Origin: Acrocarpospora macrocephala
Lineage (GTDB): Bacteria; Actinomycetota; Actinomycetes; Streptosporangiales; Streptosporangiaceae
DNA length: 60,049 bases
Assembly (NCBI RefSeq): GCF_009687865.1
Contig: NZ_BLAE01000042.1
Coordinates: forward strand, 38,068 to 98,116
Direction of reading: 5' to 3'
The position numbers were made by a program, and so were the translations under genes. The first letter of the stretch is position 1; every line of letters begins with the position of its first letter. Below, in pieces: positions 19,694 through 37,688 of the stretch. The notes under the pieces are model-generated. The model searched no databases. It saw only the letters and a list, made by a program, of their open reading frames with translations, and had not been told where the DNA came from.

Positions 19694-19707
19694 AACGATG
19701 GCTCCGT

Positions 19708-20166
19708 TCACAGACCGAAGGGGCCTGGGGGAAGGTGGAAGTCGAGCGTGGCGCTCAGCAGCAGCAACAGCGCCGTGGTCACGACCGCGCCGCCCAGCGA
19801 GAAGGACAGGCTCAACCGGCTGCCGAAGCGCAGGAAGGCGAACAGCCAGATCGGCACGCCGATGACCCCGCCCAGCGCGACCAGCAGCACGAGCAACCCG
19901 GCGAACCAGCCCATCCACAGCGCGAACGCCCGGAGGGTGCCCGCGTCAACCCGCTCCTCGCCGTCCTCTTCGGGGTGGTCACGGCGCAATGTCCGCAGGT
20001 CCATGACGATGATCACCAGCGCGGTGATCGTGCCGAGGATCGCGACCAGCGTGGGGAACCACATCGAGGCGTCCCGGAAGCCGCGCGCCTCATATCCGGC
20101 GTAGACCATCACGACCAGCGTGAGCGCCGCGACCGCGAGGCTGAGCCTCGCCTGAGCCGTCTTCAT
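19708..20166 (-). CDS. tctB: Tripartite tricarboxylate transporter, small membrane subunit TctB
   Basis: A 152-residue TctB subunit with four hydrophobic segments (LSLAVAALTLVVMVYAGY, WFPTLVAILGTITALVIIV, LVLLVALGGVIGVPIWLFAF, GGAVVTTALLLLLSATLDF) and a charged central loop (RRDHPEEDGEERVD). TctB pairs with the large TctA channel and the periplasmic-type binding protein TctC in secondary uptake of citrate-like acids. Its ATG overlaps the tctA stop as ATGA, and its stop overlaps a possible GTG start of MmgE/PrpD paralogue 4. Confidence 0.85.
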   Translation of the reverse strand: MKTAQARLSLAVAALTLVVMVYAGYEARGFRDASMWFPTLVAILGTITALVIIVMDLRTLRRDHPEEDGEERVDAGTLRAFALWMGWFAGLLVLLVALGGVIGVPIWLFAFLRFGSRLSLSFSLGGAVVTTALLLLLSATLDFHLPPGPFGL

Positions 20167-21662
20167 CGGGCGCTCACCAGAACCTCGTCCCGCACCGGCG
20201 GGCGTTCCTTGCGCAGGCTCCCGGCCAGCAGCACGCCGAGAATCGCGACCGCGATGAGGATCACCCCGGGCCGCACCAGCCAGCTCAGGTCGTAGCGGGC
20301 CATCGAGATCCACAGATAGCGTTCCGCGGGCGGCCCGAGCACGAAGCCGACCACGAACGCGGCCCGCGACCAGCCCGAATGCACCGCGAACCAGCCGAAC
20401 AGGCCGAGGATCAGGAGCATCGCGATGTCCGCCCAGGTCTGCGTGGTCTGGTAGACGGCCAGCGCGACCGCCACGAACAGGAACGGCACCAGCCGCCGCC
20501 CCGGGATCAGGCACAGCTTCGCCACGAAGTTGCGCAGCGAGAAGCAGATCGCGGTGGCCAGGATGTTGGCCACCACCAGGCTCCACACGATCGTCAGCAC
20601 CACCGGCAGGTTGGCGTCCGACACCAGCTCGGGGCCCGGCTGGATGCCGACCAGGATCAGGCCGCCGAGCAGCACCGCCGTCACGCCGCTGCCCGGGATG
20701 CCGAACATGAGCGCCGGGATGAGCTGGCCGCCCTCCATCGAGTTGTTGGCGGCCTCGGGCGCGATCACGCCGCGGATGTCGCCCTTGCCGAAGCGGCTGC
20801 GGTCTTTGGACAGGCGGGCGGTCAGGCCGTACACGATCCAGTTGATGGCGCTGCCGCCCACGCCCGGGATCGCGCCGAGCAGGGCGCCGAGGCCGGAGCT
20901 GCGCAGCACGAGCCCGGGATGGCGGAGCGTGTCCCGCGCCCCCTCCAGCCGCCCGGCCGTGATCCGCGCGGTGACGTCGCTGATCGGCTTGTTGCGGCGC
21001 AGCAGGTCGACGAACTCGGGGATCGCGAAGATCGCCATCGCCACCATCGCGATCGGCAGCCCGTCCGTCAGGTACGGCGAGCCGAAGGTGTAGCGGTAGT
21101 CCGGCGAGGCGGGCGCGGACCCCACCGTGCTCAGCAGCATGCCGAACAGGGCCGCCAGCAGCCCTTTGGCGACCGCGCCCCGGGCCAGGATGGCGACCGT
21201 GCTGATGCCGAGCATGGTCAGCATGAACAGCTCGGGCGACCCGAACGCCAGGATCAGCGGCCGGAACAGCGGCAGCACCGCGAACAGCACGGCCGCGCCG
21301 AAGATGCCGCCCAGCATGGACGCGGTGAACGAGGCGCCCAGCGCCCGCCCGGCCTGCCCTTGTTTGGCGAGGGGATAGCCGTCCATCACGGTCGCGCCCG
21401 CGCCGGCCGAGCCGGGCACCCCGACCAGCACGGCGGGGAAGGTGTCGGAGGTGTGGTTGGCCGCCATGATGCCGATCATCAGCGCCATCGCCGAATGCGG
21501 GTCCATCCCGTACACGAACGGCAGCAGCAGCGACATTCCGGCCACGCCGCCCAGGCCCGGAATCAGGCCGACCACGAGACCGACCAGCACGCCCAGCAGC
21601 AGCCAGCCCAGGCGCTCCGGGGTGAACAGCCCGGCCAGCGCCTCTAATGCGATATCCAGCAT
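20163..21662 (-). CDS. tctA: Tripartite tricarboxylate transporter, large membrane subunit TctA
   Basis: A 499-residue TctA with about twelve hydrophobic segments. The family signatures are clear: VGLVVGLIPGLGGVAGMSLL, LMIGIMAANHTSDTFPAVLV and VGVPGSAGAGATVMDGYPLA, and later FGIPGSGVTAVLLGGLIL, the second half of the inverted repeat. TctA forms the transport path and takes its substrate from TctC. Citrate and tricarballylate are the known substrates of the family, but many members carry other carboxylates. It lies 64 bases after tctC, with a strong hairpin between. Confidence 0.93.
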   Translation of the reverse strand: MLDIALEALAGLFTPERLGWLLLGVLVGLVVGLIPGLGGVAGMSLLLPFVYGMDPHSAMALMIGIMAANHTSDTFPAVLVGVPGSAGAGATVMDGYPLAKQGQAGRALGASFTASMLGGIFGAAVLFAVLPLFRPLILAFGSPELFMLTMLGISTVAILARGAVAKGLLAALFGMLLSTVGSAPASPDYRYTFGSPYLTDGLPIAMVAMAIFAIPEFVDLLRRNKPISDVTARITAGRLEGARDTLRHPGLVLRSSGLGALLGAIPGVGGSAINWIVYGLTARLSKDRSRFGKGDIRGVIAPEAANNSMEGGQLIPALMFGIPGSGVTAVLLGGLILVGIQPGPELVSDANLPVVLTIVWSLVVANILATAICFSLRNFVAKLCLIPGRRLVPFLFVAVALAVYQTTQTWADIAMLLILGLFGWFAVHSGWSRAAFVVGFVLGPPAERYLWISMARYDLSWLVRPGVILIAVAILGVLLAGSLRKERPPVRDEVLVSAR

Positions 21663-21687
21663 GCGAATCCTCGATCGAAAGGGGGCT

Positions 21688-21718
21688 CCGGGCGGGCGGG
21701 GCGACCCCGCCCGCCCGG
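21688..21718 (-). terminator. GC-rich hairpin between tctC and tctA (attenuating terminator)
   Basis: CCGGGCGGGCGGGG (21688-21701) pairs perfectly with CCCCGCCCGCCCGG (21705-21718), with a 3-base loop, in the tctC-tctA gap. In the direction of transcription it is followed by GAGCCCCCTTTC rather than a T-run, so partial termination or mRNA 3'-end stabilisation is likely. This would give more binding protein than channel. Confidence 0.6.
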
Positions 21719-21726
21719 TTTGATCG

Positions 21727-22872
21727 TCAGGACGGGAACTTGTAGTCCCAGCGCCTGGTCAGGTAGTCCTGCAGCCACTTGCGGGCCTCGGGGCTGGGCT
21801 TGACCATCGCGTCGATGGCCGACTGCAGCGCCGCGCCGCGCAGCGGTTCGTTGCCCTGCAGCTCCTCGTCCAGCGTCTTGCGCATGGCCGGATCGGTGAG
21901 CATCTTCTCGATGCCCTGGTTGAAGGCGTCCACGGCCGCCGCCGGCGCGTCGCCGTGCAGCCACAGCGCCTTGCTGAGCGAGTCGCCACTGGCCACCAGC
22001 AGGTTGTTGGCCTCCCATTCGGGGCCGGCCGCGGGCTTGCCGGTGATCTTCTCGTACAGCTCGGCGGGGGTCATCAGGTCGGGCAGCGACGGCACCCGCT
22101 CCAGCTTCCCGTTGACCACCAGGCCGGTGCTCATGATCGGCACGATCTCGCCGCTGTCCACCTTCGGCTTGATCTCCCGCAGGTACGGCAGGGCGCTGTC
22201 GGTGGAGATGTTGCTCTCGCCGCGCTCGAAGGCGATCCGGCTGTCACCGGCGCCCTCGTACCCGAAGATCGCCTGGTATTTCACGCCCAGCAGGTCGAGC
22301 GCGAGCAGCCGGCGCAGGTCGCCGCCGGACGGGTTCTCCCCGGCGAACCGCAGCGGCTCCGCCGTCTTGCCCGCGATGTCCTCGGGCTTCTTGATGCCGG
22401 TGCTGGCCCACACGTAGAGCGCGCCGCCGAACGGGAAGCCCACGATGGGCTTCATGTCGACGAAGTCGAACTTCACGTTGGGGTCCTGCAGCACGTAGGC
22501 GGAGTGGGTGGAGCCGGAGGAGACCAGGATCGTGGTGCCGTCGTGCGGCTCACGCTCCATGAAATGGTTGGTGCCGGTGATGCTGCCGCCACCACCCCGG
22601 TTCTCGATGAAGATGCTGGGATTGCCCGGGATGGCCTTCTGCAGCAGCGGCGCCAGCAGCCGCGCCGTCGTGTCGGCCCCGCCGCCCGGCGCGAACGGCA
22701 CCAGCAGCTTGATCTTCTTGCCTTCGTAGTACGGCGCCTGCTGCTCGGCGCCCTGCTGGGCTCCGTCGGTGGCGGCGGTCCCGCCGCAGGCGGCCAGCAG
22801 CGCGCACGCGACGGCGGCGGCTCCCAGCCGAATGGTCGTTAAACGCTGCCGGTGGTGGTCGGTTCGGGTCAT
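21727..22872 (-). CDS. tctC: Tripartite tricarboxylate transporter solute-binding lipoprotein TctC
   Basis: A 381-residue binding protein of the Bug/TctC family. The N-terminus has a basic start, a hydrophobic stretch and the lipobox ALLAACGG near residue 30, so it is probably anchored outside the membrane as a lipoprotein. KIKLLVPFAPGGGADTTARL, ENRGGGGSITGTNHF and the final domain match the family's two-lobed carboxylate-binding fold. It is longer than usual (~320) because of extra residues at both ends. The ATG at 22872 is chosen because AGGAGG lies 10 bases upstream; the in-frame GTG at 22881 would have no room for a ribosome-binding site. Confidence 0.9.
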   Translation of the reverse strand: MTRTDHHRQRLTTIRLGAAAVACALLAACGGTAATDGAQQGAEQQAPYYEGKKIKLLVPFAPGGGADTTARLLAPLLQKAIPGNPSIFIENRGGGGSITGTNHFMEREPHDGTTILVSSGSTHSAYVLQDPNVKFDFVDMKPIVGFPFGGALYVWASTGIKKPEDIAGKTAEPLRFAGENPSGGDLRRLLALDLLGVKYQAIFGYEGAGDSRIAFERGESNISTDSALPYLREIKPKVDSGEIVPIMSTGLVVNGKLERVPSLPDLMTPAELYEKITGKPAAGPEWEANNLLVASGDSLSKALWLHGDAPAAAVDAFNQGIEKMLTDPAMRKTLDEELQGNEPLRGAALQSAIDAMVKPSPEARKWLQDYLTRRWDYKFPS

Positions 22873-22948
22873 TGCAGCCACGCCTCCTGGGGCCTGCTAG
22901 CTGTCGTGCTCACTTACGCGGGGCCACGGTCGTCGTCACCTCTCTTCG

Positions 22949-24415
22949 TCACCTCTCTTCCGGGATCCCCGTGCCGTGGCGCGCGCGGGATCCGATCAGC
23001 AGCCTGGAAAGTTCCCCGAGGTCAGGCATGCCGGCCAGGTTCTTGATCAGGTCGATGACGCGGTCCGGTTCGTCGAGGCCCGAGCACCGCGCGAACTTGC
23101 CCTCGATGTCGCCGTCGGTGAGCGCGGTCTCGGGCGTGCGCCCGCGCGGGCGTTCCATCCGGGCGGTGTACGTCCGGCCGCCCGCCTTCACCGTCACCTC
23201 CGCGGCGAAATGCTCCGGCCCCTGGCGGTCCTCCGGCAGCGGGCGGGCCCGCACTTTCGCGCGCATCGCGACGACGTCGGGCCGGTTGATCGCCTCCGGG
23301 GTGAAGTGCTCGATGGCGATATATCCGTCTAACAGGGCCAGGGCGACCACATGCTGCAGGCTGAACTTCGCGCTCAGCGGCCCGTCCACCTCCGGCCGGT
23401 CCAGGTGCGCGAACCTGCGCGGATGGATGAACGCCTCAACCTCATCGATCGAGCCTGCGAAGTTGGCCTGACCCGCGAAGCCACTCGGACCCGCGTTGGT
23501 CAGACCCGCGCCGTCCGGACCTGCGATATTGGTCGTGCCCGCTATCTCGGCCCGGAGCTTGATCGCGGCGTCGATGGCCGCGTGTGTCCCGCCGCAGCAC
23601 GGATGAAGCTTGATCGCCAGCCCGGGATCCTCCAGATCCCACGGGTTCCCCAGGCTCGCCACCATGGCCGCCGGGTCGAACAGCCCAGGCCCGTTGAAGA
23701 CCGCCCCGAACCCCTGCTTGTCCTCCATGGCGCCCGGGTTGGCCGTCGCCCCCGCCCGGGCCAGCAGCGCGCAGGCCACCCCCGCCTGCGCCGCCCGCCC
23801 GACCTGCAGCGGCTTGGCCATCGCCCCGAAACTCGACTTGATCCCGGCCGCGGCCGCCGTGGCCAGCGCCAGCGCGGCCGTCACCTGCCCGGCCGTACAT
23901 CCCAGTAGCTTCGCGGCCGCCGCGGCCGCCCCGAACGTCCCCAGCGTCGATGTCGGATGCCACCCTTTGTCGTAGTGCAGGAAGTTCACCCCACGCGCGA
24001 TGGAGGTGGCCACCTCCACCCCCGCGCAGTAGGCCGCCAGCAGCTCCCGCCCCGACCGCCCTTCCTGCTCCGCCACCGCGAACGCGGCCGGAAACACGGC
24101 AACCGTCGGATGTCCCCCCATGGTGTGACTCACATCGTCGAAGTCGAGCGCGTGCCCCACCGCCCCGTTGGCGAAGGCGGCCAGCTCAGCCGTACTCCGC
24201 CGCCCCATCCCCAGCACGGTCGCCGCCCCCGGCCCACCGTGATCGAGATACGCGCCGACCACCTCGGCCAGCGGCTCCCCCCGCCCCGCCAGCGTGACCC
24301 CCACCAGATCCAGCACGCTCCGCAGCGCGGTCGCCCGCGCCCGCTCCGGCACATCCTCAAGCCGCGCACCGGCCACCCACCGGCCCAGAACACTCAGTAC
24401 GAATTGGTCGGCCAC
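22949..24415 (-). CDS. MmgE/PrpD family protein with repeat insertion (paralogue 5 of 5)
   Basis: A 488-residue MmgE/PrpD protein, the first gene of the island. Motifs are intact: GHALDFDDVSHTMGGHPTV, GAMAKPLQVGRAAQAG and IKLHPCCGGTHAAIDAA. A Gly/Ala/Asn-rich stretch of about 30 residues (IAGPDGAGLTNAGPS, then GFAGQANFAGS) interrupts the domain after the CC motif; it is built of degenerate x-A-G-x-x pentapeptides and explains the extra length. The GTG start has GGGAG seven bases upstream. It is preceded by a 286-base control region carrying the shared ACATTGATT motif, so this is probably where the main transcript begins. Confidence 0.87.
   Translation of the reverse strand: MADQFVLSVLGRWVAGARLEDVPERARATALRSVLDLVGVTLAGRGEPLAEVVGAYLDHGGPGAATVLGMGRRSTAELAAFANGAVGHALDFDDVSHTMGGHPTVAVFPAAFAVAEQEGRSGRELLAAYCAGVEVATSIARGVNFLHYDKGWHPTSTLGTFGAAAAAAKLLGCTAGQVTAALALATAAAAGIKSSFGAMAKPLQVGRAAQAGVACALLARAGATANPGAMEDKQGFGAVFNGPGLFDPAAMVASLGNPWDLEDPGLAIKLHPCCGGTHAAIDAAIKLRAEIAGTTNIAGPDGAGLTNAGPSGFAGQANFAGSIDEVEAFIHPRRFAHLDRPEVDGPLSAKFSLQHVVALALLDGYIAIEHFTPEAINRPDVVAMRAKVRARPLPEDRQGPEHFAAEVTVKAGGRTYTARMERPRGRTPETALTDGDIEGKFARCSGLDEPDRVIDLIKNLAGMPDLGELSRLLIGSRARHGTGIPEER
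23455..23545 (-). repeat. In-frame degenerate 15-bp repeats inside MmgE/PrpD paralogue 5
   Basis: Five to six degenerate 15-base units encode an x-A-G-x-x pattern, in frame within the coding region. The four other paralogues have no such insertion at this place. It is probably a surface loop expanded by replication slippage. Confidence 0.6.
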
Positions 24416-24459
24416 GGCGAACTCCCTCGCCTACCTAGCGAACCTGATCAACCAGGTAC

Positions 24460-24524
24460 ACATTGATTACGCTGATGTAAAAAGTAAACATAGACACGTT
24501 GATGCACCTCGTCAATGGTGCATC
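24460..24524. promoter_or_regulatory. Control region of the catabolic island
   Basis: The A/T-richer region before MmgE/PrpD paralogue 5 contains ACATTGATT (24460-24468), shared with the crotonase promoter, and a perfect 8-bp inverted repeat GATGCACC (24501-24508) / GGTGCATC (24517-24524) with an 8-base spacer. Its dyad symmetry suits a dimeric GntR- or TetR-type repressor. No such regulator gene lies next to it. The rest of 24416-24701 holds only the terminator described separately. Confidence 0.45.
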
Positions 24525-24579
24525 GCAAAAAGGCAGGTATCGGACTATCCCAACCATCTACCTGCGAAAACAAGAAGAC

Positions 24580-24603
24580 GGGCCCACCTAGGGAGGTGGG
24601 CCC
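24580..24603 (-). terminator. Terminator of the sigma factor/subtilase operon
   Basis: GGGCCCACCT and AGGTGGGCCC form a perfect 10-bp stem with a 4-base loop. On the minus strand it is followed by GTCTTCTTGTTTT, a T-rich tail, about 100 bases past the last gene of the leftward sigma/subtilase operon. It also insulates the catabolic island. Confidence 0.75.
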
Positions 24604-24701
24604 GCCTGCGGCTTTGGGCACCTGACGGCGCGGCCGACGAATGAGATCCGCGCCAACTTGAGGCTCGGTGCGACGTTACGGCGGGTACCGGTCCGATCGG
24701 G

Positions 24702-25163
24702 TCACACCGTCGCCCAGGTCGTTATCACGTCCGCGATGCCGGGGCAGCGGCACCACAGCCGGAATCGGTCGACCGGCTTGGTGATGGTGAACCCGCCCAC
24801 CTCGTCCACCGGCATCTCGGGCCCCCAGCCGGATTCGGCCCAGATCCGGACCGTCCCGGGCCGTGGTGGCACCAGCTGGCCGACCAGTGTTCGCTCCGTG
24901 ACCTCGATCTCGATGGTCAGTTCGGCTGACCGGAAGGTCAGGGAATGGAGATGGGCGGTGTCGGCGCGGGTCAGGGCAAGGTCTTCCTCATGCTGGGCCG
25001 AGTCGTAGGCGAGGACGGCGAGTTCGGCGTCGATGCCGTGCCAGGCGTACGCGGTCTTGGCGGCCTCGACGAAGTCACGCGGGACGGCGTCGGCGGCTCT
25101 CAGCGCGGCGGCCAGGCGGCCGAGGAGTTCGTCGTCGTCCCATCGCTCAGCCACGTCGGTCAC
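24702..25163 (-). CDS. Unknown protein coupled to the ECF-type sigma factor
   Basis: The 153-residue protein is not assigned to a family. The N-terminal ~60 residues look helical and acidic (WDDDELLGRLAAALRAADAVP, FVEAAKTAYAWHG). The rest looks beta-rich (LTIEIEVTERTLVGQLVPP, TVRIWAESGWG, FTITKPVDRFRLWCRC), without membrane segments, so it is not a classical membrane anti-sigma factor. The GTG start lies inside the end of the sigma gene (17-base overlap), giving translational coupling. A soluble sigma regulator or a substrate of the nearby proteases are possible roles; both are inferred from position alone. Confidence 0.72.
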   Translation of the reverse strand: MTDVAERWDDDELLGRLAAALRAADAVPRDFVEAAKTAYAWHGIDAELAVLAYDSAQHEEDLALTRADTAHLHSLTFRSAELTIEIEVTERTLVGQLVPPRPGTVRIWAESGWGPEMPVDEVGGFTITKPVDRFRLWCRCPGIADVITTWATV

Positions 25164-25743
25164 CGCCCGGCGCCGGTGTCCCGGCGTCCATCAGCGCGGC
25201 GAGCTCCGGATCGCCGCGTAGCTTGGCCAGGCAGCGTGCCCGGGTCGGGCCGATGCTCCCGATCGGTATCCCGAGGCGCGCGCTGATCTCCGTGTAGGAG
25301 ACGTCCTGGATGAGGAGCGAGACGATGCGCCGGCACGCCGGGGACAGCCGTGCGAAGGCGGCGCGTAACGCCGCATCCCGTTCCGCGGCTTCCAGCACCT
25401 GATCGATGCTGAGGGATCTGTCATCGGGATACATGGTGATGTCCGGAGGGAGCTCGACGTTCAGATGTTCACGTCGTGCCCTGAGAGTGCGGAAGCATTC
25501 GTGTTTGGTGGTGGTGGCGAGCCACGCGCCGAAACGATCCGCCTGGCGTAACCCGGACAGGTGCTCGACGGCGAGCATCCACACGCGCTGGGCCGCGTCA
25601 TCGATGTCCTGGCGGCTGGCCAGGTATCCCCGGCAGATCGACCACACCATGGGCGAGTAGCGCTTGACCAGCTCGTCCCACGCGTTCTGGTCACCGGCCC
25701 TGGCCTGGACGACGAGAGCTTCGACCAGCGACTGCGCGGGCAT
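25147..25743 (-). CDS. ECF-type RNA polymerase sigma factor
   Basis: A 198-residue group IV sigma factor. Region 2 runs from about residue 18 to 90 (AWDELVKRYSPMVWSICRGY, DIDDAAQRVWMLAVEHL, FGAWLATTTKHECFRTLR). Region 4 covers about 130-180 (LSPACRRIVSLLIQDVSYTE, ISARLGIPIGSIGPTRARCL). The ATG at 25743 follows AAAGGAGAGCACG. It lies 29 bases after the subtilase gene and overlaps the next gene, so it belongs to one operon with them. It may drive this operon and the divergent CHAT gene. Confidence 0.9.
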   Translation of the reverse strand: MPAQSLVEALVVQARAGDQNAWDELVKRYSPMVWSICRGYLASRQDIDDAAQRVWMLAVEHLSGLRQADRFGAWLATTTKHECFRTLRARREHLNVELPPDITMYPDDRSLSIDQVLEAAERDAALRAAFARLSPACRRIVSLLIQDVSYTEISARLGIPIGSIGPTRARCLAKLRGDPELAALMDAGTPAPGGDRRG

Positions 25744-25772
25744 CGTGCTCTCCTTTCGGCACCGTCGGCTCG

Positions 25773-27068
25773 TTATCTCCGAACCACCCTGATGTCCTGC
25801 TGGCTGAACGCCAGTTGCGGTGAGGTGAGCAGTTCGTTCGCCACCTCGGCGACGGTGGCACCCCGCGATGCGGCCTCTCCCGCGATGAAGCCCGCCACGT
25901 CCGCGGTGGCGAAAGAGCTTCCCTCCCACGTCGCGTAGCCTTCGCCGAAGTCCTCGATCTCGGGCAGGTCGACCATTCGGCCCCGGGCGTCGTCCACGGT
26001 CACCAGTTGCACTTCGCCGGGCAGGAACAGGCCGCGTCTGTCCGTTCCCCGCGCCATGACATCGGCCCAGACCGCCTGGTCCAGGGTGGGAGAGAAGAAT
26101 GCCTCCCGACCAGATTCGTCGTCCGCGCCAACCGCGATCACGGTGGAGCTGGCGGCCGGCCACATGGGTGTCGCGGCCGGAGGCTTGAACGGACTTGATG
26201 ATGGCTGGTCACCGTGGTTGCCAAGAGCCGCCACTTTCACCACACCGACGGTCCGTTCGCAGGCGCGCTGCAACACCAGGGGTTCCTGCCCGTCGGCCGA
26301 GGTGCCGCCCAGGGCCAGGACGAACATGTCGAGGTCGTCCTTCAATGCCTCGACCATGGCCTTGGCCACCTCCCACACCGTGGTGAGGAGGGTTCGCTCG
26401 TCGAGCACCGGCTTGATGACGAATTCCGCGTCCGGCGCCCGCTCGGCGGCGATCGAGCAGACCAGGAGGCAGTGCCCGGCGAACGAGGACAGCCTTGTCC
26501 CCCGTTCTTGCTCGATGAGAACATCCAGTGCCGATTCGTACCGCCCGTCCAGGCCGGGATGGGGAAACAGCCGGGTATCGAACACGCCAATGCGTATCCG
26601 GCGATCCCGCTGCGGCGTTTGAGGCGGCAGCCTGAAGGCGGCAGCTTTTTTCGGATGGCCGAAGCTGCCGCCGTGGTATGGCGCGGCCTTAATGCTTTCG
26701 CACATCCGGTTCTTCGCCATCGCCGGGTACCAGCCGAAATGCTTTTCGGCGAATTTCTCGCGGAGGTGGAACAACAGCTCGTCCAGCGGCGTGATCGCGA
26801 CTCCGGCGTACGTCGCTCCCCCCGCCTTCACCATCCTCGCCTTGAGGTCCGCCCTGGCCGGCAGGTTCGCCATGGCCTGGTCAAGCCCGTCCAGTTCGAA
26901 TCTCGTGAGCCCGAGCGCCTCGTTGCGTTCCGGCAGGGTCGGCACGGTGATTTTCAGATCGCGCAGCGCGTCCTCCACAATGCCCTGCTCTTTCAGGTCC
27001 ACCACGAGCTGATCGACATGGAACGACTCGGTCGCCCGACGTGCGATCCGGGATATCTCGGCTGCCAC
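25773..27068 (-). CDS. S8 family subtilisin-like serine peptidase, intracellular
   Basis: A 431-residue subtilase with the triad intact: Asp164 in RIGVFDTRLFPHPGLDG, His199 in SSFAGHCLLVCSIAAE and Ser385 in WEGSSFATADVAGF, with the oxyanion Asn in VAALGNHGDQ. There is no signal peptide, and the first ~160 residues form a helical, non-secretory N-terminal region, so it should act in the cytoplasm. I chose the GTG at 27068 because AAGAAGGGA sits upstream; an ATG at 27137 is possible but lacks a ribosome-binding site. Cytoplasmic subtilases beside CHAT proteases occur in predicted prokaryotic conflict or cell-death modules, in which one protease may activate the other. Confidence 0.9.
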   Translation of the reverse strand: MAAEISRIARRATESFHVDQLVVDLKEQGIVEDALRDLKITVPTLPERNEALGLTRFELDGLDQAMANLPARADLKARMVKAGGATYAGVAITPLDELLFHLREKFAEKHFGWYPAMAKNRMCESIKAAPYHGGSFGHPKKAAAFRLPPQTPQRDRRIRIGVFDTRLFPHPGLDGRYESALDVLIEQERGTRLSSFAGHCLLVCSIAAERAPDAEFVIKPVLDERTLLTTVWEVAKAMVEALKDDLDMFVLALGGTSADGQEPLVLQRACERTVGVVKVAALGNHGDQPSSSPFKPPAATPMWPAASSTVIAVGADDESGREAFFSPTLDQAVWADVMARGTDRRGLFLPGEVQLVTVDDARGRMVDLPEIEDFGEGYATWEGSSFATADVAGFIAGEAASRGATVAEVANELLTSPQLAFSQQDIRVVRR

Positions 27069-27170
27069 GCGACTGTCCCTTCTTTGCGAGTGCGGCGTCT
27101 CCCGATATAGAGAGGGTTTGTCGCCCGGCTGATACATCACAGCGGCGGGACTCCGCGACAAACTGCTGGG
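27069..27170. promoter_or_regulatory. Divergent promoter of the subtilase and CHAT genes
   Basis: This 102-base divergent region holds a perfect 9-bp inverted repeat, GTTTGTCGC (27116-27124) and GCGACAAAC (27155-27163), with a 30-base spacer. The right arm ends 7 bases before the CHAT start codon. It could bind a regulator controlling both directions, or mark sites for the operon's own sigma factor. Confidence 0.42.
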
Positions 27171-29819
27171 ATGGACATCAGCGCTGTGGAGCTGGCGGCC
27201 GAAATGCTGCGGCAGGCGGAGGATGATCCGGCGCGGCTGATGGTCGTGGCGTCCGGCGTCGCCGGCCGGGCCAAGGCGGGCGGCGACTTCGCGCTCGCCT
27301 CGGTCGCGACCCGGGCCATGGGCGTCGCCGCCTTCCACGTCACGAGCCTCGACGTCGCGGCCCGCCACCTCAGGGCCGCGATTCAGCTGGCCGCCCGGGC
27401 GCGGGCGCCTGAGCTGGCGGCGGAGGCCCGGTTACGGCTGGCGTTCGTCTGCTGCGTACGCGGGCACATCCAGCAGGCCATGACGGAGATCGACACGGCG
27501 ATGAGCGATCTGCGGGGATCCGGCCGGGCCCGCGCGGAGGCGCAGCGAGGCGTGATCTTCAACTTCCTCAAGCGACCGGAGGAGGCGCTGGCCTGCTACC
27601 GCACCGCGGTCCCGGTCCTGCGGCGGGACGGGGACCGCCTCTGGCTGCAGCGGGTGCTGTCCAACCGCGGGATCATTCATGGCTACCGGCACGAGTTCGC
27701 GGCCGCGGAGACGGATCTGGCCGAAGCCGAGGCGCAGTGCGAACGGCTGGACCTCGACCTCTCCATGGCCATCGTGCAGCAGAATCGTGGCTGGGTCAGC
27801 GCGATGCGCGGGGATGTCCCCGCCGCGCTGCTGCGGCTGGATTTCGCCGAGCGCCGGTTCCGCGCCCTGGGCACCCACCAGCTGTGCTGGACTCTCGTCG
27901 ACCGAGCCGAGCTGCTGCTCTCGGCCGGCCTGATCGCCGAGGCGGCCGAGGCCGCCCAGGAGGCGGTCGCCGAGTTCGAGCTCAGGCGGCGCGCCATCGG
28001 CCTGCCGGAGGCACGCCTGGTCCTGGCCCGTACGGCCTATCTGAGCGGCGAGCATGCCGCCTCGGCGGAGGTGGCGCGCCGGGCGGCCCGCGATTTCGCC
28101 CGGCAGCGCCGCCCGGACTGGGTGGCGATGGCCCGCTTCGTGGCGGTGCGGGCGTCGATCGCCGGAACCGGCGGCAAGGGCGTGACCGTGGCGCAGATCG
28201 AGCGGTGCGCGGCGGCGCTGGAAAGCTCGGGCTGGGCGCTGACCGGCGTGGAGGCGCGGATGCTCGCGGCCGGCCTCGCCACGGAGCGGGGCCAGGCCGG
28301 GCGCGCCCGCGAGCAGCTGGAGCCGGCCGCCCGGCGGCGCCATCGCGGCCCGGCCCTGCTGCGGATCCGTGCCTGGCACGCGGAGGCTCTGCTCCGGCTG
28401 GCCCGGGGCGACCGGCGTGGGGCCAGGAGCGCGATCCGCACGGCGCTGCGCGTGCACGACGAGCACGGGGCGACCCTGCGGGCCACCGACCTGCGCGCGC
28501 ACGCCTCCGGATTCCGGGTGGAAGTGGCGGAGGCCGGGCTCCGGCTGGCCCTGCAGGACGGCGACCCCGCCCAGGTCCTGACCTGGGCGGAGCAGGGCAG
28601 GGCCAGGCACCTGCTCATGCGGCCCGCGCGGCCGCCGGATGATCCCGGCCTGGCCGAGGCCATGGCGCAGCTGAGGGTCGTCGTCACCGAGATCGGTGAA
28701 GCACGTGCCGCCGGGCACGGCCCCGGTGGCCTGGCCAAGCGGCAGCTCGCGCTCGAACGGGAGATCCGCGACCACAGCCGCCGGCAGGCCGGCGAATCTC
28801 CCCAAGTGCGGGCCAGTCCGGTACGGCCCGGCGAGCTGTCGGCCGATCTCGATGACGCCGCGCTGGTCGAGTATGTCCACCTCGACGACCTGCTGTACGC
28901 GGTCACCGTGGCCGGCGGCCGGGTCCGGCTCCACCGGCTGGGGCCCTTGCCGCCGATCCGCGAGATCATCGATCGCGTGCCGTTCGCGCTGCGGCGGCTG
29001 GCCCGGCACCGCACCAGCTCCGCCGGCCGCTCCGCCGCCGCGATGCTCCTGGAACACGCCGCCACCCGGTTGGACGCGGCCCTGCTGCGCCCGCTGGAGG
29101 CCGAGATCCGCGACCGGCCCGTGGTGCTGATCCCGAGCGGTCCGCTCCAGGCGATGCCCTGGTCGATCCTGCCCTCCTGCGCCGGGCGTACGGTCACCCT
29201 GTCACCGTCGGCGACCCTGTGGCACGCCAGCGCCAGGGGGCGGCCGGTGGACGGGCCGACGATCGCGGCCGCGGGACCTGACCTGCCGGGGGCCCGCGCC
29301 GAGGTCGAGGCGGTCGCCTCGATCCACGCCGTGCCGCCGCTGGTGGGCGAGGCGGCGAGCACGGAGGCGGTGCTGGCCGCGCTGGACGGCGCCGGGCTGG
29401 CCCATCTGGCCGCCCACGGCCGCCTGCACGCGACGAACCCCTTGTTCTCCTCCCTGCGCCTGGCGGACGGCCCGCTGACCATCTACGACCTGGAACGCCT
29501 GCGCCGCCCGCCGCAGGTGCTCGTGCTGGCCGCCTGCGACAGCGGGCGTTTCGTCGTCCGCGCGGGAGATGAGCTGCTGGGGCTGAGCGCGACCTTCCTC
29601 GCGCTCGGCACGCGCGCGATCGTGGCGCCGGTCCTGTCGGTCCTCGACGCCGAGACCACCACGCTCATGATCGCTCTGCACAAGCTGCTGGCCGCCGGGC
29701 ATTCCGTCGCGTCCGCGCTCGCGCAGACCCAGCGGCAGATCGCGGGAGAGGACCCCCAAGCCGGTGCGCTGGCGGCCGCGTTCGTCTGCATCGGAGCCGA
29801 CCGCGCCGTAACGCCGTAA
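27171..29819 (+). CDS. TPR-CHAT caspase-like protease
   Basis: An 882-residue protein. Residues ~1-480 are a long array of helical TPR-like repeats (AARHLRAAIQLAARARAPEL, RPEEALACYRTAVPVL, AAETDLAEAEAQCERLDL). Residues ~560-880 form a CHAT (caspase HetF-associated with TPRs) peptidase domain. The catalytic dyad is present: His749 in LAHLAAHGRLH and Cys789 in VLVLAACDSGRF, followed by GLSATFLALGTRAIVAPV. CHAT proteases are caspase relatives that are usually activated by binding a signal through the TPR part and then cleave partner proteins. The gene is divergent from the subtilase-sigma operon across a shared promoter, so the four genes probably form one module. Confidence 0.92.
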   Translation: MDISAVELAAEMLRQAEDDPARLMVVASGVAGRAKAGGDFALASVATRAMGVAAFHVTSLDVAARHLRAAIQLAARARAPELAAEARLRLAFVCCVRGHIQQAMTEIDTAMSDLRGSGRARAEAQRGVIFNFLKRPEEALACYRTAVPVLRRDGDRLWLQRVLSNRGIIHGYRHEFAAAETDLAEAEAQCERLDLDLSMAIVQQNRGWVSAMRGDVPAALLRLDFAERRFRALGTHQLCWTLVDRAELLLSAGLIAEAAEAAQEAVAEFELRRRAIGLPEARLVLARTAYLSGEHAASAEVARRAARDFARQRRPDWVAMARFVAVRASIAGTGGKGVTVAQIERCAAALESSGWALTGVEARMLAAGLATERGQAGRAREQLEPAARRRHRGPALLRIRAWHAEALLRLARGDRRGARSAIRTALRVHDEHGATLRATDLRAHASGFRVEVAEAGLRLALQDGDPAQVLTWAEQGRARHLLMRPARPPDDPGLAEAMAQLRVVVTEIGEARAAGHGPGGLAKRQLALEREIRDHSRRQAGESPQVRASPVRPGELSADLDDAALVEYVHLDDLLYAVTVAGGRVRLHRLGPLPPIREIIDRVPFALRRLARHRTSSAGRSAAAMLLEHAATRLDAALLRPLEAEIRDRPVVLIPSGPLQAMPWSILPSCAGRTVTLSPSATLWHASARGRPVDGPTIAAAGPDLPGARAEVEAVASIHAVPPLVGEAASTEAVLAALDGAGLAHLAAHGRLHATNPLFSSLRLADGPLTIYDLERLRRPPQVLVLAACDSGRFVVRAGDELLGLSATFLALGTRAIVAPVLSVLDAETTTLMIALHKLLAAGHSVASALAQTQRQIAGEDPQAGALAAAFVCIGADRAVTP

Positions 29820-29951
29820 CCCGGTCACCACGGGCGTGTATCAGATGGCGGACTACCCGGCTCTGTGTCTAGTGCGAGCGGATTCGACACGAAAAGAGCC
29901 GGGTTCCGATGAATTCTCCGGCTCCACCTCACGAAAGCAGGGAACCGGGAA

Positions 29952-31583
29952 ATGGAACGTCATCAGCGCGACGAGTACTACGTGGTGAACGAGGGTGTGT
30001 ACCGCAGCGAGCGAGGAGTGCCCTCGTGCGTGCCCCCTTCGACAAGAGACGAGATACGGCGCTTCCGCTTCTCCCGCCTGCTGGCACCCGATCTCTCCGG
30101 CGCGGACGCGACCGGTCCCGCCCTGTCCGAGGAGCTGCTGGGGCGGCTGGCCGACGCGATGACCGTACAGGATCAGGCCGAGATCGACAGCCAGCCCGAC
30201 AGCGCCATCCCCGCCGGATACACCTATCTGGGGCAGAAGATCGACCATGACCTCACCATGGACCTCACGTCCGGGTCCCTCAACTCGAAGATCACAGTGG
30301 ACGAGCTCCTTCAGGGGCGGTCGCCCGCGCTGGACCTGGACTCGCTCTACGGGCTGGGCCCGGCGCACCCGGACAGTGCCGGGTTCTACGCCCCCGACGG
30401 CGTCCGGCTGCTCATGGGGAAGAACATCGCCGGGGGCGACATGCCCCGGCTGGATGGCTTCGACCTGCCGCGGCGCGAGGTTCCCGTCGCGGGCCGGGGC
30501 ACCGCGCTGATCCCCGACCACCGCAACGACGAGAACCTCGCGGTGGCGCAGATCCACCTGGCCTTCATCCGGTTCCACAACAAGGTGGTGGCCGATCTCG
30601 CGGAGGCCGGCACGCCCAGCGTGACGCTCTTCGAGACGGCGCGCGAACTGGTGGTGAAGCACTACCAGTGGCTGATCCGGCACGACTACCTGCCGAGGAT
30701 CGTCGACCCCGCGATCGTCGACGAGGTCTTCGGCTACGGCCGGAGGTTCTTCGAGACCTCGGCCACCCAGCCCGGCGACACCCCCACGATGCCGGTCGAG
30801 TTCTCCATGGCCGCGTTCCGTTTCGGGCACAGCATGGTCCGGGACCGGTACGAATGGAACAGCGTCTTCAACAGCGACCCGGCAGCTCCGAGACATCGGG
30901 CCCAGGCGACTCTGGAACTGCTCTTCAAATTCTCCGGCACGGGCGGCGACCGGACCTTCGAGGTCTCGGTTCCCTCGGACTGGATCGCCGACTACTGCCG
31001 GCTGTTCGACCTGACCACGGTGCCCGGCGCCGACGCCGCGTTCCACCGCTCCGCCACCGAGTTCAACTTCGCCAAGCGCATCGACACGCTGGTGGTCGAT
31101 TTCCTCCGCAGGCTCCCACCGGCCACCTTCGGCGCGACCGCCGGCGTGAGCGTCAGCGCCCGGGAGCGCAACCTCGCCTTCCGCAATCTCATGCGGGCGA
31201 CCACGGTCGATCTGGCGAGCGGCCAGCGGACGGCCGCGCTCCTCGGCGTGAAGGCGCTGACCGACGCGGAGATCCTGGTCGGGTCCGGCGGCGCCGACCT
31301 CACCGGTCTCCCCGGAGAGGATCAGCAGGCGCTGCTCGCGAACACGCCGCTGTGGTTCTACATCCTGCGGGAGGCGGAGATCAACGGCGGGCGCCTCACC
31401 GGTGTCGGCGGCCGGATCGTCGCCGAGGTGTTCCACCGGGCCATGGAGGGCAGCCGCCACTCGATCGTGCGCGAGCCCTCATGGCGGCCGACCCTCGGCC
31501 TGGAGCCGGGGACATTCGGCATGCCGCATCTCCTGATCTACGCGTTCGAGAATCGGAGTGAGCTGCTCAACCGGGTTGGGTGA
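29952..31583 (+). CDS. Animal-type haem peroxidase (peroxidase-cyclooxygenase superfamily)
   Basis: A 543-residue bacterial member of the animal haem peroxidase family, which use H2O2 to oxidise halides or organic substrates. Distal His99 lies in LGQKIDHDLTMD, followed by a Ca-loop-like segment. The catalytic Arg is probably Arg191 in IPDHRNDENLAVAQIH, and the proximal haem ligand His293 is in MAAFRFGHSMVRDRY. There is no signal peptide, so a cytosolic location is likely. It follows the CHAT gene by 132 bases on the same strand and may be an effector or simply a neighbour. The last 17 bases overlap the convergent MFS gene. Confidence 0.9.
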   Translation: MERHQRDEYYVVNEGVYRSERGVPSCVPPSTRDEIRRFRFSRLLAPDLSGADATGPALSEELLGRLADAMTVQDQAEIDSQPDSAIPAGYTYLGQKIDHDLTMDLTSGSLNSKITVDELLQGRSPALDLDSLYGLGPAHPDSAGFYAPDGVRLLMGKNIAGGDMPRLDGFDLPRREVPVAGRGTALIPDHRNDENLAVAQIHLAFIRFHNKVVADLAEAGTPSVTLFETARELVVKHYQWLIRHDYLPRIVDPAIVDEVFGYGRRFFETSATQPGDTPTMPVEFSMAAFRFGHSMVRDRYEWNSVFNSDPAAPRHRAQATLELLFKFSGTGGDRTFEVSVPSDWIADYCRLFDLTTVPGADAAFHRSATEFNFAKRIDTLVVDFLRRLPPATFGATAGVSVSARERNLAFRNLMRATTVDLASGQRTAALLGVKALTDAEILVGSGGADLTGLPGEDQQALLANTPLWFYILREAEINGGRLTGVGGRIVAEVFHRAMEGSRHSIVREPSWRPTLGLEPGTFGMPHLLIYAFENRSELLNRVG

Positions 31584-32754
31584 CCGCCACCTCGCGGTAG
31601 GCCGAACGCAGGCCGGCGGCCAGGAGCAGGGTGACGATGACGGAGGCGCAGGCCATGACGCCCATCGCGGTGGCCGGGGTGGTGAGCTGGGCGATCGTTC
31701 CGGCCAGGGCGGCGCCGACGCCCTGCATGGTGGTCAGGCCGGCGGATTGCAGGCCGAGGGCCTGGCCGGAGATGGACTCGGGGGTGAGGGCCAGCAGGCG
31801 TTCCTGGAGGAGCAGGCTGGCGGAGAAGCCGATGGAGGCGAGGGCGACGGCGGCCACGGCGAAGGGCAAGGACGGGTGCAGGAAGAAGATCAGGTAGGGG
31901 ATGGCGAGCAGGAGGCGGAGGGGGGCGCCTAGCCGTACGCGCCAGTGAGGTGGGAGGAAGCGGCCCGCGGCGATGTCGCCGAGGAGCATGCCGAAGGCGG
32001 CGAAGGCGAACAGCACGCCCGCGTGGGCGGGATCGAAGGCGACGAAGAGGGACTCGCAGCCGACAATCAAGCCGTTGGGAACCCATAACGCGAGGTAGAG
32101 GGACCGGTGCGACCCGGACGACCAGAGGACGCGGTTGGTGCGCCAGGTTTCGGGGATCGAAGGTCGGCCGGTGGCGCGGGGCGGCCTGGCGGTCAGGCCG
32201 AGGCGGGCGGTGGCGGCGGCGAGCAGGTAGAGGGACGCGCCGGTGAGGAGGGTGAGGGCGGGGGCCAGGAAGGTGACGAGCAGGCCGCCGATGGCGTATC
32301 CGACGATCTGCTGGATGCCGACGGACATGTTGATCGTGGAGCGGCCGAGCAGGTAGCCGTCCTTGGGGAGGATCTCGTTGAGGAGGCCGAAACGTACGCC
32401 GCCGCCGATGGAGGCGGCCAGGCCGAGCAGGAAGATGATCGCGAAGATGGCCCAGACGGGCAGGCCCGGGATGGCCACGGCGGCCGTGCCGAGGGCGAAG
32501 GTGAGGGCGAGGGCGATCATGGCGGCGCGGGGCGGCAGGCGGTCGGCCGCGGAGAGCAGGGCGAGCGCGCCGATCATCTGCGCGAAGGACGGGCCGAACA
32601 TGCTCAGGGCGGATAACAACGGCGAACTGGTGGCGGTGTAGACGAGCACGCCGAGGGCCAGGCCGCTGATGGTGGAGGCGGCGATCTGCAGGGATACGAC
32701 GGAGAAGAGGGCCTTGAATTCGGGGACGCGGAAAAGATCCCCATAGGTGCGCAT
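31567..32754 (-). CDS. MFS transporter (DUF5937/ArsR-controlled exporter)
   Basis: A 395-residue major facilitator with about twelve hydrophobic segments, of the kind often annotated as a drug efflux permease (ALGVLVYTATSSPLLSALS, IGGGVRFGLLNEILP). The start MRTYGDLFRVPEFKALF at 32754 is typical for this group. It is divergent from an ArsR-type regulator whose operator-like palindrome lies between them, so it is probably the regulated target. Substrate is unknown. The frame runs on upstream to 33768, but that part is antisense to the regulator. Confidence 0.88.
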   Translation of the reverse strand: MRTYGDLFRVPEFKALFSVVSLQIAASTISGLALGVLVYTATSSPLLSALSMFGPSFAQMIGALALLSAADRLPPRAAMIALALTFALGTAAVAIPGLPVWAIFAIIFLLGLAASIGGGVRFGLLNEILPKDGYLLGRSTINMSVGIQQIVGYAIGGLLVTFLAPALTLLTGASLYLLAAATARLGLTARPPRATGRPSIPETWRTNRVLWSSGSHRSLYLALWVPNGLIVGCESLFVAFDPAHAGVLFAFAAFGMLLGDIAAGRFLPPHWRVRLGAPLRLLLAIPYLIFFLHPSLPFAVAAVALASIGFSASLLLQERLLALTPESISGQALGLQSAGLTTMQGVGAALAGTIAQLTTPATAMGVMACASVIVTLLLAAGLRSAYREVAVTQPG

Positions 32755-32790
32755 GACGGGAAGTCTCCGGGGGGCCCGCGCGCGGGCGTT

Positions 32791-32816
32791 ATTGTTTCGC
32801 GGGGAGGCGAAACAAT
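32791..32816. promoter_or_regulatory. Perfect palindromic operator over the regulator's start codon
   Basis: ATTGTTTCGC (32791-32800) and GCGAAACAAT (32807-32816) form a perfect 10-bp inverted repeat around GGGGAG, which is the ribosome-binding site of the regulator gene. The right arm includes the first two bases of its ATG (32815). A bound dimer would cover the start of the regulator and the promoter of the divergent MFS gene, a classical autorepression layout. Confidence 0.65.
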
Positions 32817-33822
32817 GGGGTTGTGGCAGGTCAACGCGGACACGATGGCGGGCAGCCGGTTCGTGGTCTCGGCGGCGGCCGAAACCACCGCGTGCATGTT
32901 CGCCCTGGAGAAGGGCATGGCCACGCACCCGGGCGACCGCGCGTGGCTGGACGCCCACTCCCCCGCCTACCGGGCCCGGCTGGCCGGCGACCCGATCACC
33001 GCGCTGCTGCTGCGGGCGGCCCGGGGACGCAACTGGATCGCCGACTTCCTCACCCCGACCCCGCCGGGTGACGGCGCCCCTGCCTTTCTCGACGAGATCG
33101 GCCGGGTACGGCGCACGCCGCCCGAGGTCGTCCACGCCGACCTGGAGGTGTGCCTGCGCCGCCCCCTGCCGGCGGCGCTCCGGCGTGACGATCTCGCCGA
33201 CCGGGCGGCCGACCTGCTGGAATGGGTGTGGGCGGAGACCGTGCTGCCGTACTGGCCGAGGCGGCGGCGCATTCTTGAGGCCGATATCGTCGCGCGTACC
33301 AGGCATCTCGGGCAGGGCGGGTGGGCGGCGGCGCTGGACGACATGTCTCCGGGCATGCGCTGGCTGGGCGACAACCGCCTGCAGATCAACACCCATGACT
33401 ATCCGCCGCGAGACGTGACGGACGCCCGGCTGATGTTCGTTCCGGTGACGCCGCGCTCGGGGTGGGTGTCCTGGGACAGCGGGCGGCGCTTCTGCGTCGT
33501 CTATCCCTGTTCGGGCCCGCTCGCCGAACCCGAACCGGCGCGGCCCCCGGACGCCCTGGCGCGGCTGATCGGCGCGGGGCGGGCGCACGTGCTGACGCTG
33601 CTGGACACGCCGAAGAGCACCTCGCATCTGGTGGCGCTGACCGGCCAGGGTCTGGGTTCCGTCGGCCGCCACCTCAAGATCTTGCTGGACGCCGGGCTGA
33701 TCCAGCGCCGCCGATCGGGGCGATCTGTCCTGTATTTCCGTACGGACGCGGGCGCGGTCCTCGTTCAATCGTCAGCTGGTCAGGGGGCGTTGTGTGGCGC
33801 GATGCCCAGGCCGTCCACCTGA
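32815..33822 (+). CDS. DUF5937/ArsR-type winged-helix transcriptional regulator
   Basis: A 335-residue regulator. Residues ~1-240 resemble the DUF5937 domain (FVVSAAAETTACMFALEK, WIADFLTPTPPGDG), presumably ligand-sensing. Residues ~245-320 form an ArsR-type winged helix (LARLIGAGRAHVLTLLDTPK, STSHLVALTGQGLGSVGRHL, LLDAGLIQRRRSGRSVLYF). The ATG overlaps a perfect operator-like palindrome, with GGGGAGG as ribosome-binding site. It probably represses itself and the divergent MFS exporter. Confidence 0.88.
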   Translation: MGLWQVNADTMAGSRFVVSAAAETTACMFALEKGMATHPGDRAWLDAHSPAYRARLAGDPITALLLRAARGRNWIADFLTPTPPGDGAPAFLDEIGRVRRTPPEVVHADLEVCLRRPLPAALRRDDLADRAADLLEWVWAETVLPYWPRRRRILEADIVARTRHLGQGGWAAALDDMSPGMRWLGDNRLQINTHDYPPRDVTDARLMFVPVTPRSGWVSWDSGRRFCVVYPCSGPLAEPEPARPPDALARLIGAGRAHVLTLLDTPKSTSHLVALTGQGLGSVGRHLKILLDAGLIQRRRSGRSVLYFRTDAGAVLVQSSAGQGALCGAMPRPST

Positions 33823-33925
33823 GCACCGCGCCGGGTGTTCTCCCACGCGCTATGCAACCGTGTTTCCCTGTCAACGCACAGGTCCACTCCCGCACCGGAA
33901 TCTCCCCGTTGTGGACCCCTGTCTT

Positions 33926-34900: not shown

Positions 34901-34901
34901 T

Positions 34902-36636: not shown

Positions 36637-36688
36637 CCCGGCGCGTCGGAGCCGTGGCCGGTCGTCGTGACCGGCCACGGGCGCCCGA

Positions 36689-37639: not shown

Positions 37640-37688
37640 GCGCCGCACCGTAACGGAACACCCCGTCCGGTTGACTAAAGTGAGAGTG

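What the first reader, a model, noticed from the sequence alone, without database searches (positions are those of the whole stretch)
24702..29819. CHAT protease, intracellular subtilase, ECF-type sigma factor and an unknown protein form one compact divergent module
Seen: a sigma factor, a signal-less S8 peptidase (Asp164, His199, Ser385) and an unassigned 153-residue protein in an overlapping operon with its own terminator, divergent by 102 bases from an 882-residue TPR-CHAT protein with His749/Cys789 intact. Known: CHAT proteases are caspase-like and act in bacterial immunity and cell-death systems; subtilases and sigma factors recur beside them. Inferred: a signal sensed by the TPRs activates CHAT, the two proteases act in cascade, and the 153-residue protein or the sigma factor is a substrate, coupling proteolysis to transcription.
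Basis: partly seen in the sequence, partly recalled or inferred. Interest (0 to 1): 0.8.

Follow-up and report, generated by a model that had tools for sequence, protein, structure and literature searches.

The report
Protease-controlled sigma-factor switch (ECF54 type)
Four neighbouring genes, two protein-cutting enzymes, a gene-expression switch protein and a small partner protein, travel together across many actinobacteria and most likely form a signalling switch in which cutting the small partner turns genes on; the grouping is already in print, but how it works has not been shown.

Summary
In detail: TPR-CHAT protease, cytoplasmic S8 peptidase, ECF sigma factor and 153-residue protein lie as described. 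The grouping is real: 74 of 102 loci seeded mainly by the 153-residue family, and 45 of 80 seeded by sigma alone, hold all four genes, in about 15 arrangements. It is not new as a grouping: a review reports CHAT, subtilase and 'carboxypeptidase' genes around sigma group ECF54. The 153-residue protein is probably that third item: a helical hairpin plus a beta-sandwich weakly like carboxypeptidase-regulatory domains, not a peptidase. Its most conserved residue is an Arg (R66) in the flexible linker, in a V-R-[G/S/A] motif, a candidate cleavage site. It co-diversifies with sigma and CHAT, not with the subtilase. A promoter-like box, GTATCA-N16/17-CTC, occurs in 63 of 80 sigma-seeded loci; the window has two, before the subtilase operon and before a haem-peroxidase gene after CHAT. 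Best reading: a CRISPR-free, Craspase-like switch in which CHAT cuts the small partner and so controls sigma. Binding, cleavage, signal and the subtilase's role are untested. The two-protease cascade and the immune role gained no support here and are not excluded.

The parts
24702..25163 (-). 153-residue partner: helical hairpin (10-23, 29-40), flexible linker, C-terminal beta-sandwich weakly like carboxypeptidase-regulatory domains
24966..24968 (-). codon of linker residue Arg66, candidate cleavage site of the 153-residue protein (inference)
25147..25743 (-). ECF sigma factor, most likely group ECF54, overlapping the partner gene by 17 nt
25773..27068 (-). S8 peptidase (subtilase), no signal peptide seen, intact catalytic residues
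27107..27136 (-). promoter-like box TGTATCA-N17-CTCTAT upstream of the S8-sigma-partner operon
27171..29819 (+). TPR-CHAT protease, 882 aa, His749/Cys789; predicted fold like separase and Csx29
29837..29866 (+). second promoter-like box TGTATCA-N17-CTCTGT, between CHAT and the peroxidase gene
29952..31583 (+). animal-type haem peroxidase gene, predicted target; also next to CHAT in L034, L035, L037 and L092 with a similar box
24576..24607 (-). terminator-like hairpin after the 153-residue gene

Best explanation
A cytoplasmic, protease-gated ECF sigma-factor switch of the ECF54 type. SHOWN by sequence analysis: the four genes form a conserved module; the sigma gene is usually followed directly by the small-partner gene; both proteases keep their catalytic residues; a GTATCA-N16/17-CTC box lies upstream of the operon and of a few neighbouring genes, here a haem peroxidase. 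INFERRED: the sigma factor recognises that box, so the circuit is self-amplifying. The small partner binds the sigma factor and is also read by CHAT. When the TPR repeats of CHAT sense a still unknown signal, CHAT cuts the partner after Arg66, splitting the helical hairpin from the beta-sandwich and freeing the sigma factor (less likely, arming it). The S8 peptidase is a second cytoplasmic step, most simply clearing fragments or resetting the switch; its target is unknown. In this genome the output looks local: the operon itself plus the peroxidase gene.
For: Linkage: all four genes in 74 of 102 loci and in 45 of 80 loci seeded by sigma alone, 68 of 80 with at least sigma and partner; no other neighbour family in more than 15 of 102 loci. 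Partner domain begins within 260 nt after the sigma frame on the same strand in 77 of 90 loci with sigma. Partial correlations of distances over 74 loci, bootstrap 95%: partner-sigma 0.48 [0.35,0.62], partner-CHAT 0.44 [0.34,0.52], partner-S8 -0.13 [-0.26,0.01]. Linker motif [VTLIA]R[GSA] in 149 of 168 linkers against a mean of 54 in shuffled linkers. Box: 107 sites in 63 of 80 loci, 2 in the reversed-pattern control, mean 2.6 in 10 Markov controls; the window has exactly 2, either side of CHAT, 0.04 expected. L034, L035, L037 and L092, with the peroxidase next to CHAT, carry [GC]GTATCA-N16-CTC in that gap (L034 and L092 are identical there, so three independent cases). CHAT fold is among the closest to Csx29, which cuts the sigma inhibitor Csx30 (PMC10028731 passages).
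Against: Seven of 102 loci keep CHAT, S8 and partner but lack an adjacent sigma gene, and all seven keep the TGATACATC core of the box, so the partner may serve the proteases alone or a sigma in trans. Six of 102 have sigma and partner with no protease found nearby, two of them on very short contigs. No recognised anti-sigma domain; the N-terminal part is only two predicted helices. Sigma follows the N- and C-terminal parts of the partner equally (0.29, 0.32), so the data do not say which part binds it; no housekeeping genes were used to remove the species tree. The conserved Arg could be a binding residue. Genome-wide, exact boxes are hardly more frequent than the reversed control (54 against 37 in 16 genomes; 16 against 21 in 8), so no wide regulon is seen. 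Which sigma uses the box, complex formation, cleavage and signal were not tested.
Confidence: 0.45

Rival explanations
1. Published ECF54 view: the proteases keep the system off by degrading the sigma factor itself, and a signal stops the proteolysis; the small protein is an adaptor or scaffold.
For: PMC8999054 section 3.3 (passages) describes proteolytic degradation of sigma factors and proposes proteolytic control for ECF54 because of the subtilase, CHAT and carboxypeptidase genes around it. S8 co-varies with sigma (0.33) and not with the partner (-0.13).
Against: The partner, not sigma, is present in the seven sigma-less protease loci and its linkers carry the motif. Sigma was not examined for a comparable motif.
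Confidence: 0.25
2. TPR-CHAT acts mainly as the anti-sigma or sensor subunit itself, as the CHAT-containing transmembrane anti-sigma factor DdvA may, and proteolysis is secondary.
For: DdvA (8rw5, 8rot; entry titles only) is among the closest solved structures to the CHAT model and a profile hit at 1.1e-10. CHAT-sigma partial correlation 0.33.
Against: Catalytic His and Cys kept in 57 of 57 rows. No N-terminal or linker membrane stretch: the one 19-residue window above a mean hydropathy of 1.6 starts at residue 807, inside the folded CHAT domain. CHAT follows the partner (0.44) more closely than sigma (0.33), though the intervals overlap.
Confidence: 0.12
3. Anti-phage or cell-death system in which CHAT and the subtilase act as an executing cascade.
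For: Craspase, CalpL and SAVED-CHAT are immune proteases that work through sigma factors or cascades (PMC10028731, PMC11417357, PMC11229360; passages). Weak PADLOC BovA matches at the CHAT active site (E 0.0018 and 0.0025); weak Csa3 and PDC-M05A matches for an ArsR-like neighbour (best 1.1e-5).
Against: No PADLOC match for the other three proteins or for the four other neighbours scanned, no CRISPR-like repeats in 18-38 kb, partner family present in 132 of 249 genomes of the order, predicted targets are a peroxidase and LuxR-type regulators. Defence genes around the related loci were not surveyed, and no phage test can be run here.
Confidence: 0.13
4. Chance neighbours or simple shared inheritance without joint function.
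For: Some loci share flanking genes within a group.
Against: The 74 loci with all four genes show 15 different arrangements; reciprocal searches agree.
Confidence: 0.02

Closest known systems
ECF54 sigma-factor group and its gene context (review PMC8999054, passages; it cites Casas-Pastor 2021 and Huang 2015, neither held)
   Same: ECF sigma without a classical anti-sigma factor, with subtilase, CHAT and 'carboxypeptidase' genes in conserved context. A Geodermatophilus sp. locus (L283), the genus of the review's ECF54 model protein, holds all four families, in another order.
   Different: The review calls the third item carboxypeptidase; here it is a helical hairpin plus a regulatory-like beta-sandwich with a possible cleavage linker. 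That the two are the same item is my inference. Promoter box, targets and co-diversification are additions that I could not check against the 2021 paper.
Craspase: Csx29 (TPR-CHAT), Csx30, CASP-sigma of type III-E CRISPR
   Same: TPR-CHAT protease, ECF sigma factor and a two-domain partner gene together; Csx30 inhibits CASP-sigma and is cut by Csx29 (PMC10028731 passages); the CHAT model resembles Csx29 (8eey, E 6.1e-13).
   Different: No CRISPR-like repeats and no Cas gene recognised among the neighbours examined, no match near the Csx29 cut-off (19.1 against 300 bits), a far smaller partner, and an added subtilase.
CalpL/CalpT/CalpS
   Same: Protease, anti-sigma factor and ECF sigma factor; cleavage of the anti-sigma releases a fragment still bound to sigma, later thought to be degraded (PMC11417357 passages).
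   Different: Lon-type protease with a SAVED domain that binds cyclic oligoadenylate; the two proteases here match CHAT and S8.
DdvA transmembrane anti-sigma factor (PDB 8rw5, 8rot)
   Same: CHAT-domain protein tied to sigma-factor control and similar in fold.
   Different: DdvA is a membrane protein by its title; the window protein has no likely membrane segment outside the CHAT fold. Known to me only from the entry titles.

Membership tests
ECF54 sigma-factor context | subtilase, CHAT and carboxypeptidase-type domain genes beside the sigma gene | tested here: met
   for the third item only weakly: CarboxypepD_reg matches 29 of 58 partner proteins at E up to 0.5, best 2.5e-4, and not the window's own protein
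ECF54 sigma-factor context | sequence falls in the ECF54 group by its published model | not testable with these tools
   no ECF54 model is held and the paper is not held; the same four families occur at a Geodermatophilus sp. locus found by a sigma-seeded search
Type III-E Craspase | TPR-CHAT protein of the Csx29 family | tested here: not met
   NF041237 19.1 bits against a cut-off of 300
Type III-E Craspase | Cas7-11 and CRISPR array at the locus | tested here: not met
   no direct repeats of 22 nt or more within 120 nt in window 18000-38000; no ORF longer than 882 aa overlaps 20000-34000; neighbours scanned are other families. The whole genome was not searched for Cas7-11
Type III-E Craspase | protease cuts the partner that binds sigma | not testable with these tools
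   only indirect signs: linker motif and co-diversification
CHAT protease family (PF12770) | CHAT domain above the curated cut-off with catalytic His and Cys | tested here: met
   115.3 bits against 24; His and Cys in 57 of 57 rows
Known anti-phage defence system | match to a PADLOC model | tested here: inconclusive
   none for three proteins; weak BovA matches for CHAT, E 0.0018 and 0.0025
CalpL/T/S | Lon-SAVED protease | tested here: not met
   the two proteases match CHAT (with TPR) and Peptidase_S8 only

The most novel reading that the evidence does not exclude
A CRISPR-free counterpart of Craspase that is widespread in actinobacteria: an Arg-specific, separase-like TPR-CHAT protease cuts a 150-residue two-domain sigma partner at a conserved V-R-[G/S/A] linker, releasing an ECF sigma factor that fires GTATCA-N16/17-CTC promoters of its own operon and of local effectors such as a haem peroxidase or LuxR-type regulators. 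It could be the ancestral form from which the CRISPR-linked version was recruited.
Probability: 0.35. Interest if true: 0.8.

Novelty: new member of a known kind. Interest (0 to 1): 0.55.

Why it matters
TPR-CHAT proteases that act through a sigma factor are known experimentally, as far as I know, from rare CRISPR loci. Here the same parts occur with no CRISPR seen at the locus, and the partner family is in 132 of 249 genomes of one order. There is a predicted cleavage residue, a predicted promoter and a predicted target gene. That turns a published context-only proposal about ECF54 into direct bench tests, and may show what such circuits did before CRISPR systems used them.

Tried and rejected
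Considered and dropped: (1) Reading the + strand as TTGTC-N7-TGATACATC: in the own genome only the window's site is exact. The operon-strand reading GTATCA-N16/17-CTC keeps its spacing across families and replaced it. (2) A wide regulon: genome-wide counts are near the reversed-pattern control. (3) A peptidase in the 153-aa protein: no peptidase family matched; the commonest weak match is CarboxypepD_reg. (4) Naming its fold by structure search: nothing below E 0.001. (5) A further conserved module gene: none above 15 of 102 loci. (6) Reading the 2021 and 2015 ECF papers: not held. (7) A paper on DdvA: no hit in the listing.

Selection to keep in mind: the 60 flanks and 38 of the 40 (the other two are own-genome copies) were picked by hand down the rankings, so the 102-locus counts (these 100, L092 and the window) are not a random sample, and the partner is present in them by construction. 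In one search only the best nine candidates per genome were scored, so 44 of 396 is a lower bound. In one search I pasted the 150 partner places, the best 123 CHAT places and the best 50 sigma places from the printed lists. One S8 row (L051) is an unrelated gene and was left in. In one search, 15 of 107 box sites have no assigned gene, and two members of the LuxR cluster (L230, L293) look doubtful. Gene starts in relatives are estimates.
Full report
OBSERVATION. The three minus-strand genes S8 (25773-27068), sigma (25147-25743) and a 153-residue protein (24702-25163) form one unit: 29 nt between S8 and sigma, a 17-nt overlap between sigma and the 153-aa gene, and a terminator-like hairpin after it. 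TPR-CHAT (27171-29819, +) starts 102 nt away. Sigma70_r2, Peptidase_S8 and CHAT are above their Pfam cut-offs; the 153-aa protein has no match above a cut-off. No hydrophobic N-terminus was found; the one window of high hydropathy, in CHAT from residue 807, lies inside the folded domain.

CONSERVATION OF THE MODULE. The 153-aa family occurs in 132 of 249 genomes of the order and, with a profile, in at least 44 of 396 genomes drawn from the phylum. In 102 loci with flanks (60 hand-picked places, 40, one Nonomuraea record, the window) all four genes are present in 74, in 15 arrangements. Examples: CHAT divergent from S8-sigma-partner (34 loci), S8-sigma-partner-CHAT in one direction (20), CHAT divergent from sigma-partner-S8 (3). 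Some incomplete loci are cut by contig ends. No other neighbour family occurs in more than 15 of the 102 loci. The reverse searches agree: 30 of the 31 best CHAT-domain hits (93 of the best 123) have the partner within 10 kb, and 34 of the 35 best sigma hits (42 of the best 50) within 2 kb. A search of named genomes with sigma alone (best 80 of 527 kept) gave 68 of 80 with the partner, 51 with CHAT, 50 with S8 and 45 with all four; 12 had sigma only. The loci with all four include Streptomyces, Micromonospora, Catellatospora, Amycolatopsis, Saccharothrix and Geodermatophilus.

WHAT IS ALREADY IN PRINT. A 2022 review (PMC8999054; passages seen) says that proteolytic control has been proposed for sigma group ECF54 because carboxypeptidase, subtilase and CHAT genes lie in its context, citing two papers that are not held here. 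My searches for ECF54 and related terms listed no other paper on this module. So the grouping is known; I found no experiment on it in this library.

THE 153-RESIDUE PROTEIN. The predicted structure (mean pLDDT 86.8) has two N-terminal helices, a low-confidence linker (residues 61-70, mean 62) and a confident C-terminal beta-sandwich. CarboxypepD_reg matches 29 of 58 family members at E up to 0.5, best 2.5e-4, but not the window protein; fold search gives only weak, mostly Ig-like matches. I take it to be the review's 'carboxypeptidase', a regulatory-like domain and not an enzyme. Its most conserved position is an Arg in the linker, R66 in the window (165 of 168 unique proteins; the other three have a gap), followed by G, S or A in 147 of 165. 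Linker length varies on both sides. Because an aligner tends to line up Args, I tested the motif without relying on that column: [VTLIA]R[GSA] occurs in 149 of 168 linkers, against a mean of 54 (maximum 72) after shuffling each linker, and in 64 of 78 representatives below 50% identity against 26. Every linker holds some Arg, shuffled or not, so the motif and not the Arg alone is the signal. This is what a processing site would look like; it is not proof of one.

WHO GOES WITH WHOM. Over 74 complete loci, partial correlations of corrected distances (bootstrap over loci) are partner-sigma 0.48, partner-CHAT 0.44, partner-S8 -0.13, S8-sigma 0.33, CHAT-sigma 0.33, CHAT-S8 0.21. The C-terminal part of the partner follows CHAT more closely than the N-terminal part does (0.35 against 0.19, bootstrap share 0.97), while sigma follows both parts alike (0.29, 0.32). 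This fits a partner that touches both sigma and CHAT. It says nothing directly about cutting, S8 distances may be noisier, and no housekeeping genes were used as a control. Against the simple view, seven loci keep CHAT, S8 and partner without a neighbouring sigma gene; six of these share flanking genes and may be one lineage. Six loci have sigma and partner without proteases nearby.

PROMOTER BOX. The gap between CHAT and S8 holds a conserved element. Read on the operon strand it is TGTATCA followed at 16 or 17 nt by CTC. In the 102 loci 51 of 85 TGTATCA words lie near the start of S8, sigma or partner frames on the same strand (6.0 expected); 41 of these 51 have CTC at 16/17, and so do 22 of the other 34, several of them before neighbouring genes. 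In the 80 sigma-seeded loci there are 107 sites in 63 loci, against 2 in the reversed-pattern control and a mean of 2.6 in ten Markov controls; 49 of the 107 are assigned to one of the four module genes. The window has exactly two sites, minus strand at 27107-27136 and plus strand at 29837-29866, with 0.04 or 0.01 expected; with the 17-nt spacing the 12.1-Mb genome has three. The second site precedes an animal-type haem peroxidase gene (PF03098, 6.2e-17). The same gene lies beside CHAT in L034, L035, L037 and L092 and in none of the other loci searched; each of the four has [GC]GTATCA-N16-CTC in the gap, one letter off the window's box (L034 and L092 are identical there). In the 80 loci a cluster of 17 predicted genes follows boxes; of the 14 printed, 12 start 33-34 nt from the box, as for a leaderless message. 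Two were scanned and are LuxR-type (GerE) regulators, one with a clear AAA domain; two similar genes of the 102-locus set are LuxR-type too. Genome-wide, boxes are not clearly in excess, so the response looks local. That the module's own sigma uses the box is an inference.

THE CHAT PROTEIN. The model (mean pLDDT 88.3) has a long TPR superhelix and a CHAT domain, with a disordered loop (790-803) just after Cys789. Closest solved structures by E-value are separase, Csx29 and the transmembrane anti-sigma factor DdvA; TM-scores by query among these are moderate (up to 0.52). By sequence alone the best single-protein match is Csx29, weak (E 0.043). Csx29 cuts Csx30, an inhibitor of an ECF sigma factor (PMC10028731 passages). 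Separase is, from my own knowledge, Arg-specific, which would fit the linker Arg.

VERDICT. The module is real, widespread and documented as ECF54 context. The most likely mechanism is a Craspase-like sigma switch without CRISPR, with the small partner as substrate; confidence 0.45. The role of the subtilase, the signal and any link to immunity remain open.

Noticed in passing
G000:C24 (L032), G000:C72 (L123), G000:C80 (L124): The window's genome carries three further copies of the module or parts of it: C24 without a sigma gene, C72 with S8, sigma and partner near a contig end, C80 with CHAT, partner and sigma.
   Followed up: partly
window 27129-27170 and relatives: Counted by eye in about six close loci, TGATACATC stands 32-33 nt before the CHAT start codon and a CACACT-like word just before it, suggesting a leaderless CHAT message from a promoter overlapping the operon promoter.
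   Followed up: partly
L151-L159: A diverged branch of the partner family with longer proteins, still next to sigma and mostly to S8 and CHAT.
   Followed up: no
L233:2276-3010 and seven further loci, six of the eight Catellatospora: A gene after a box; the one protein scanned (L233) has a weak CarboxypepD_reg match, 6.7e-6.
   Followed up: no
L038:10291-12114; L226:8675-9514; L230:2687-3850: Other genes after a box: a matrixin metallopeptidase, a HopA1-family protein and a radical SAM protein.
   Followed up: no
G000:C123:2175-2200 (L195): A box just after a related sigma gene (40% identity) in the own genome, leading to an ATPase-like protein similar at its start to the LuxR-type regulator of L272.
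   Followed up: partly
window 33926-34915: Tyrosine recombinase (Phage_integrase, 7.8e-28), about 4 kb beyond the CHAT gene.
   Followed up: no
window 32815-33822: ArsR-like protein with weak PADLOC Csa3 matches, probably only the shared DNA-binding fold.
   Followed up: no
window 42661-43905: A second ECF-type sigma factor with a C-terminal DUF6596 domain.
   Followed up: no
plasmid record NZ_LT559118.1 (L092): An 11.85-Mb Nonomuraea gerenzanensis replicon labelled as a plasmid looks like a chromosome; it carries all four genes, but its CHAT reading frame is shorter than in its near-identical relative L034, so it appears interrupted.
   Followed up: no
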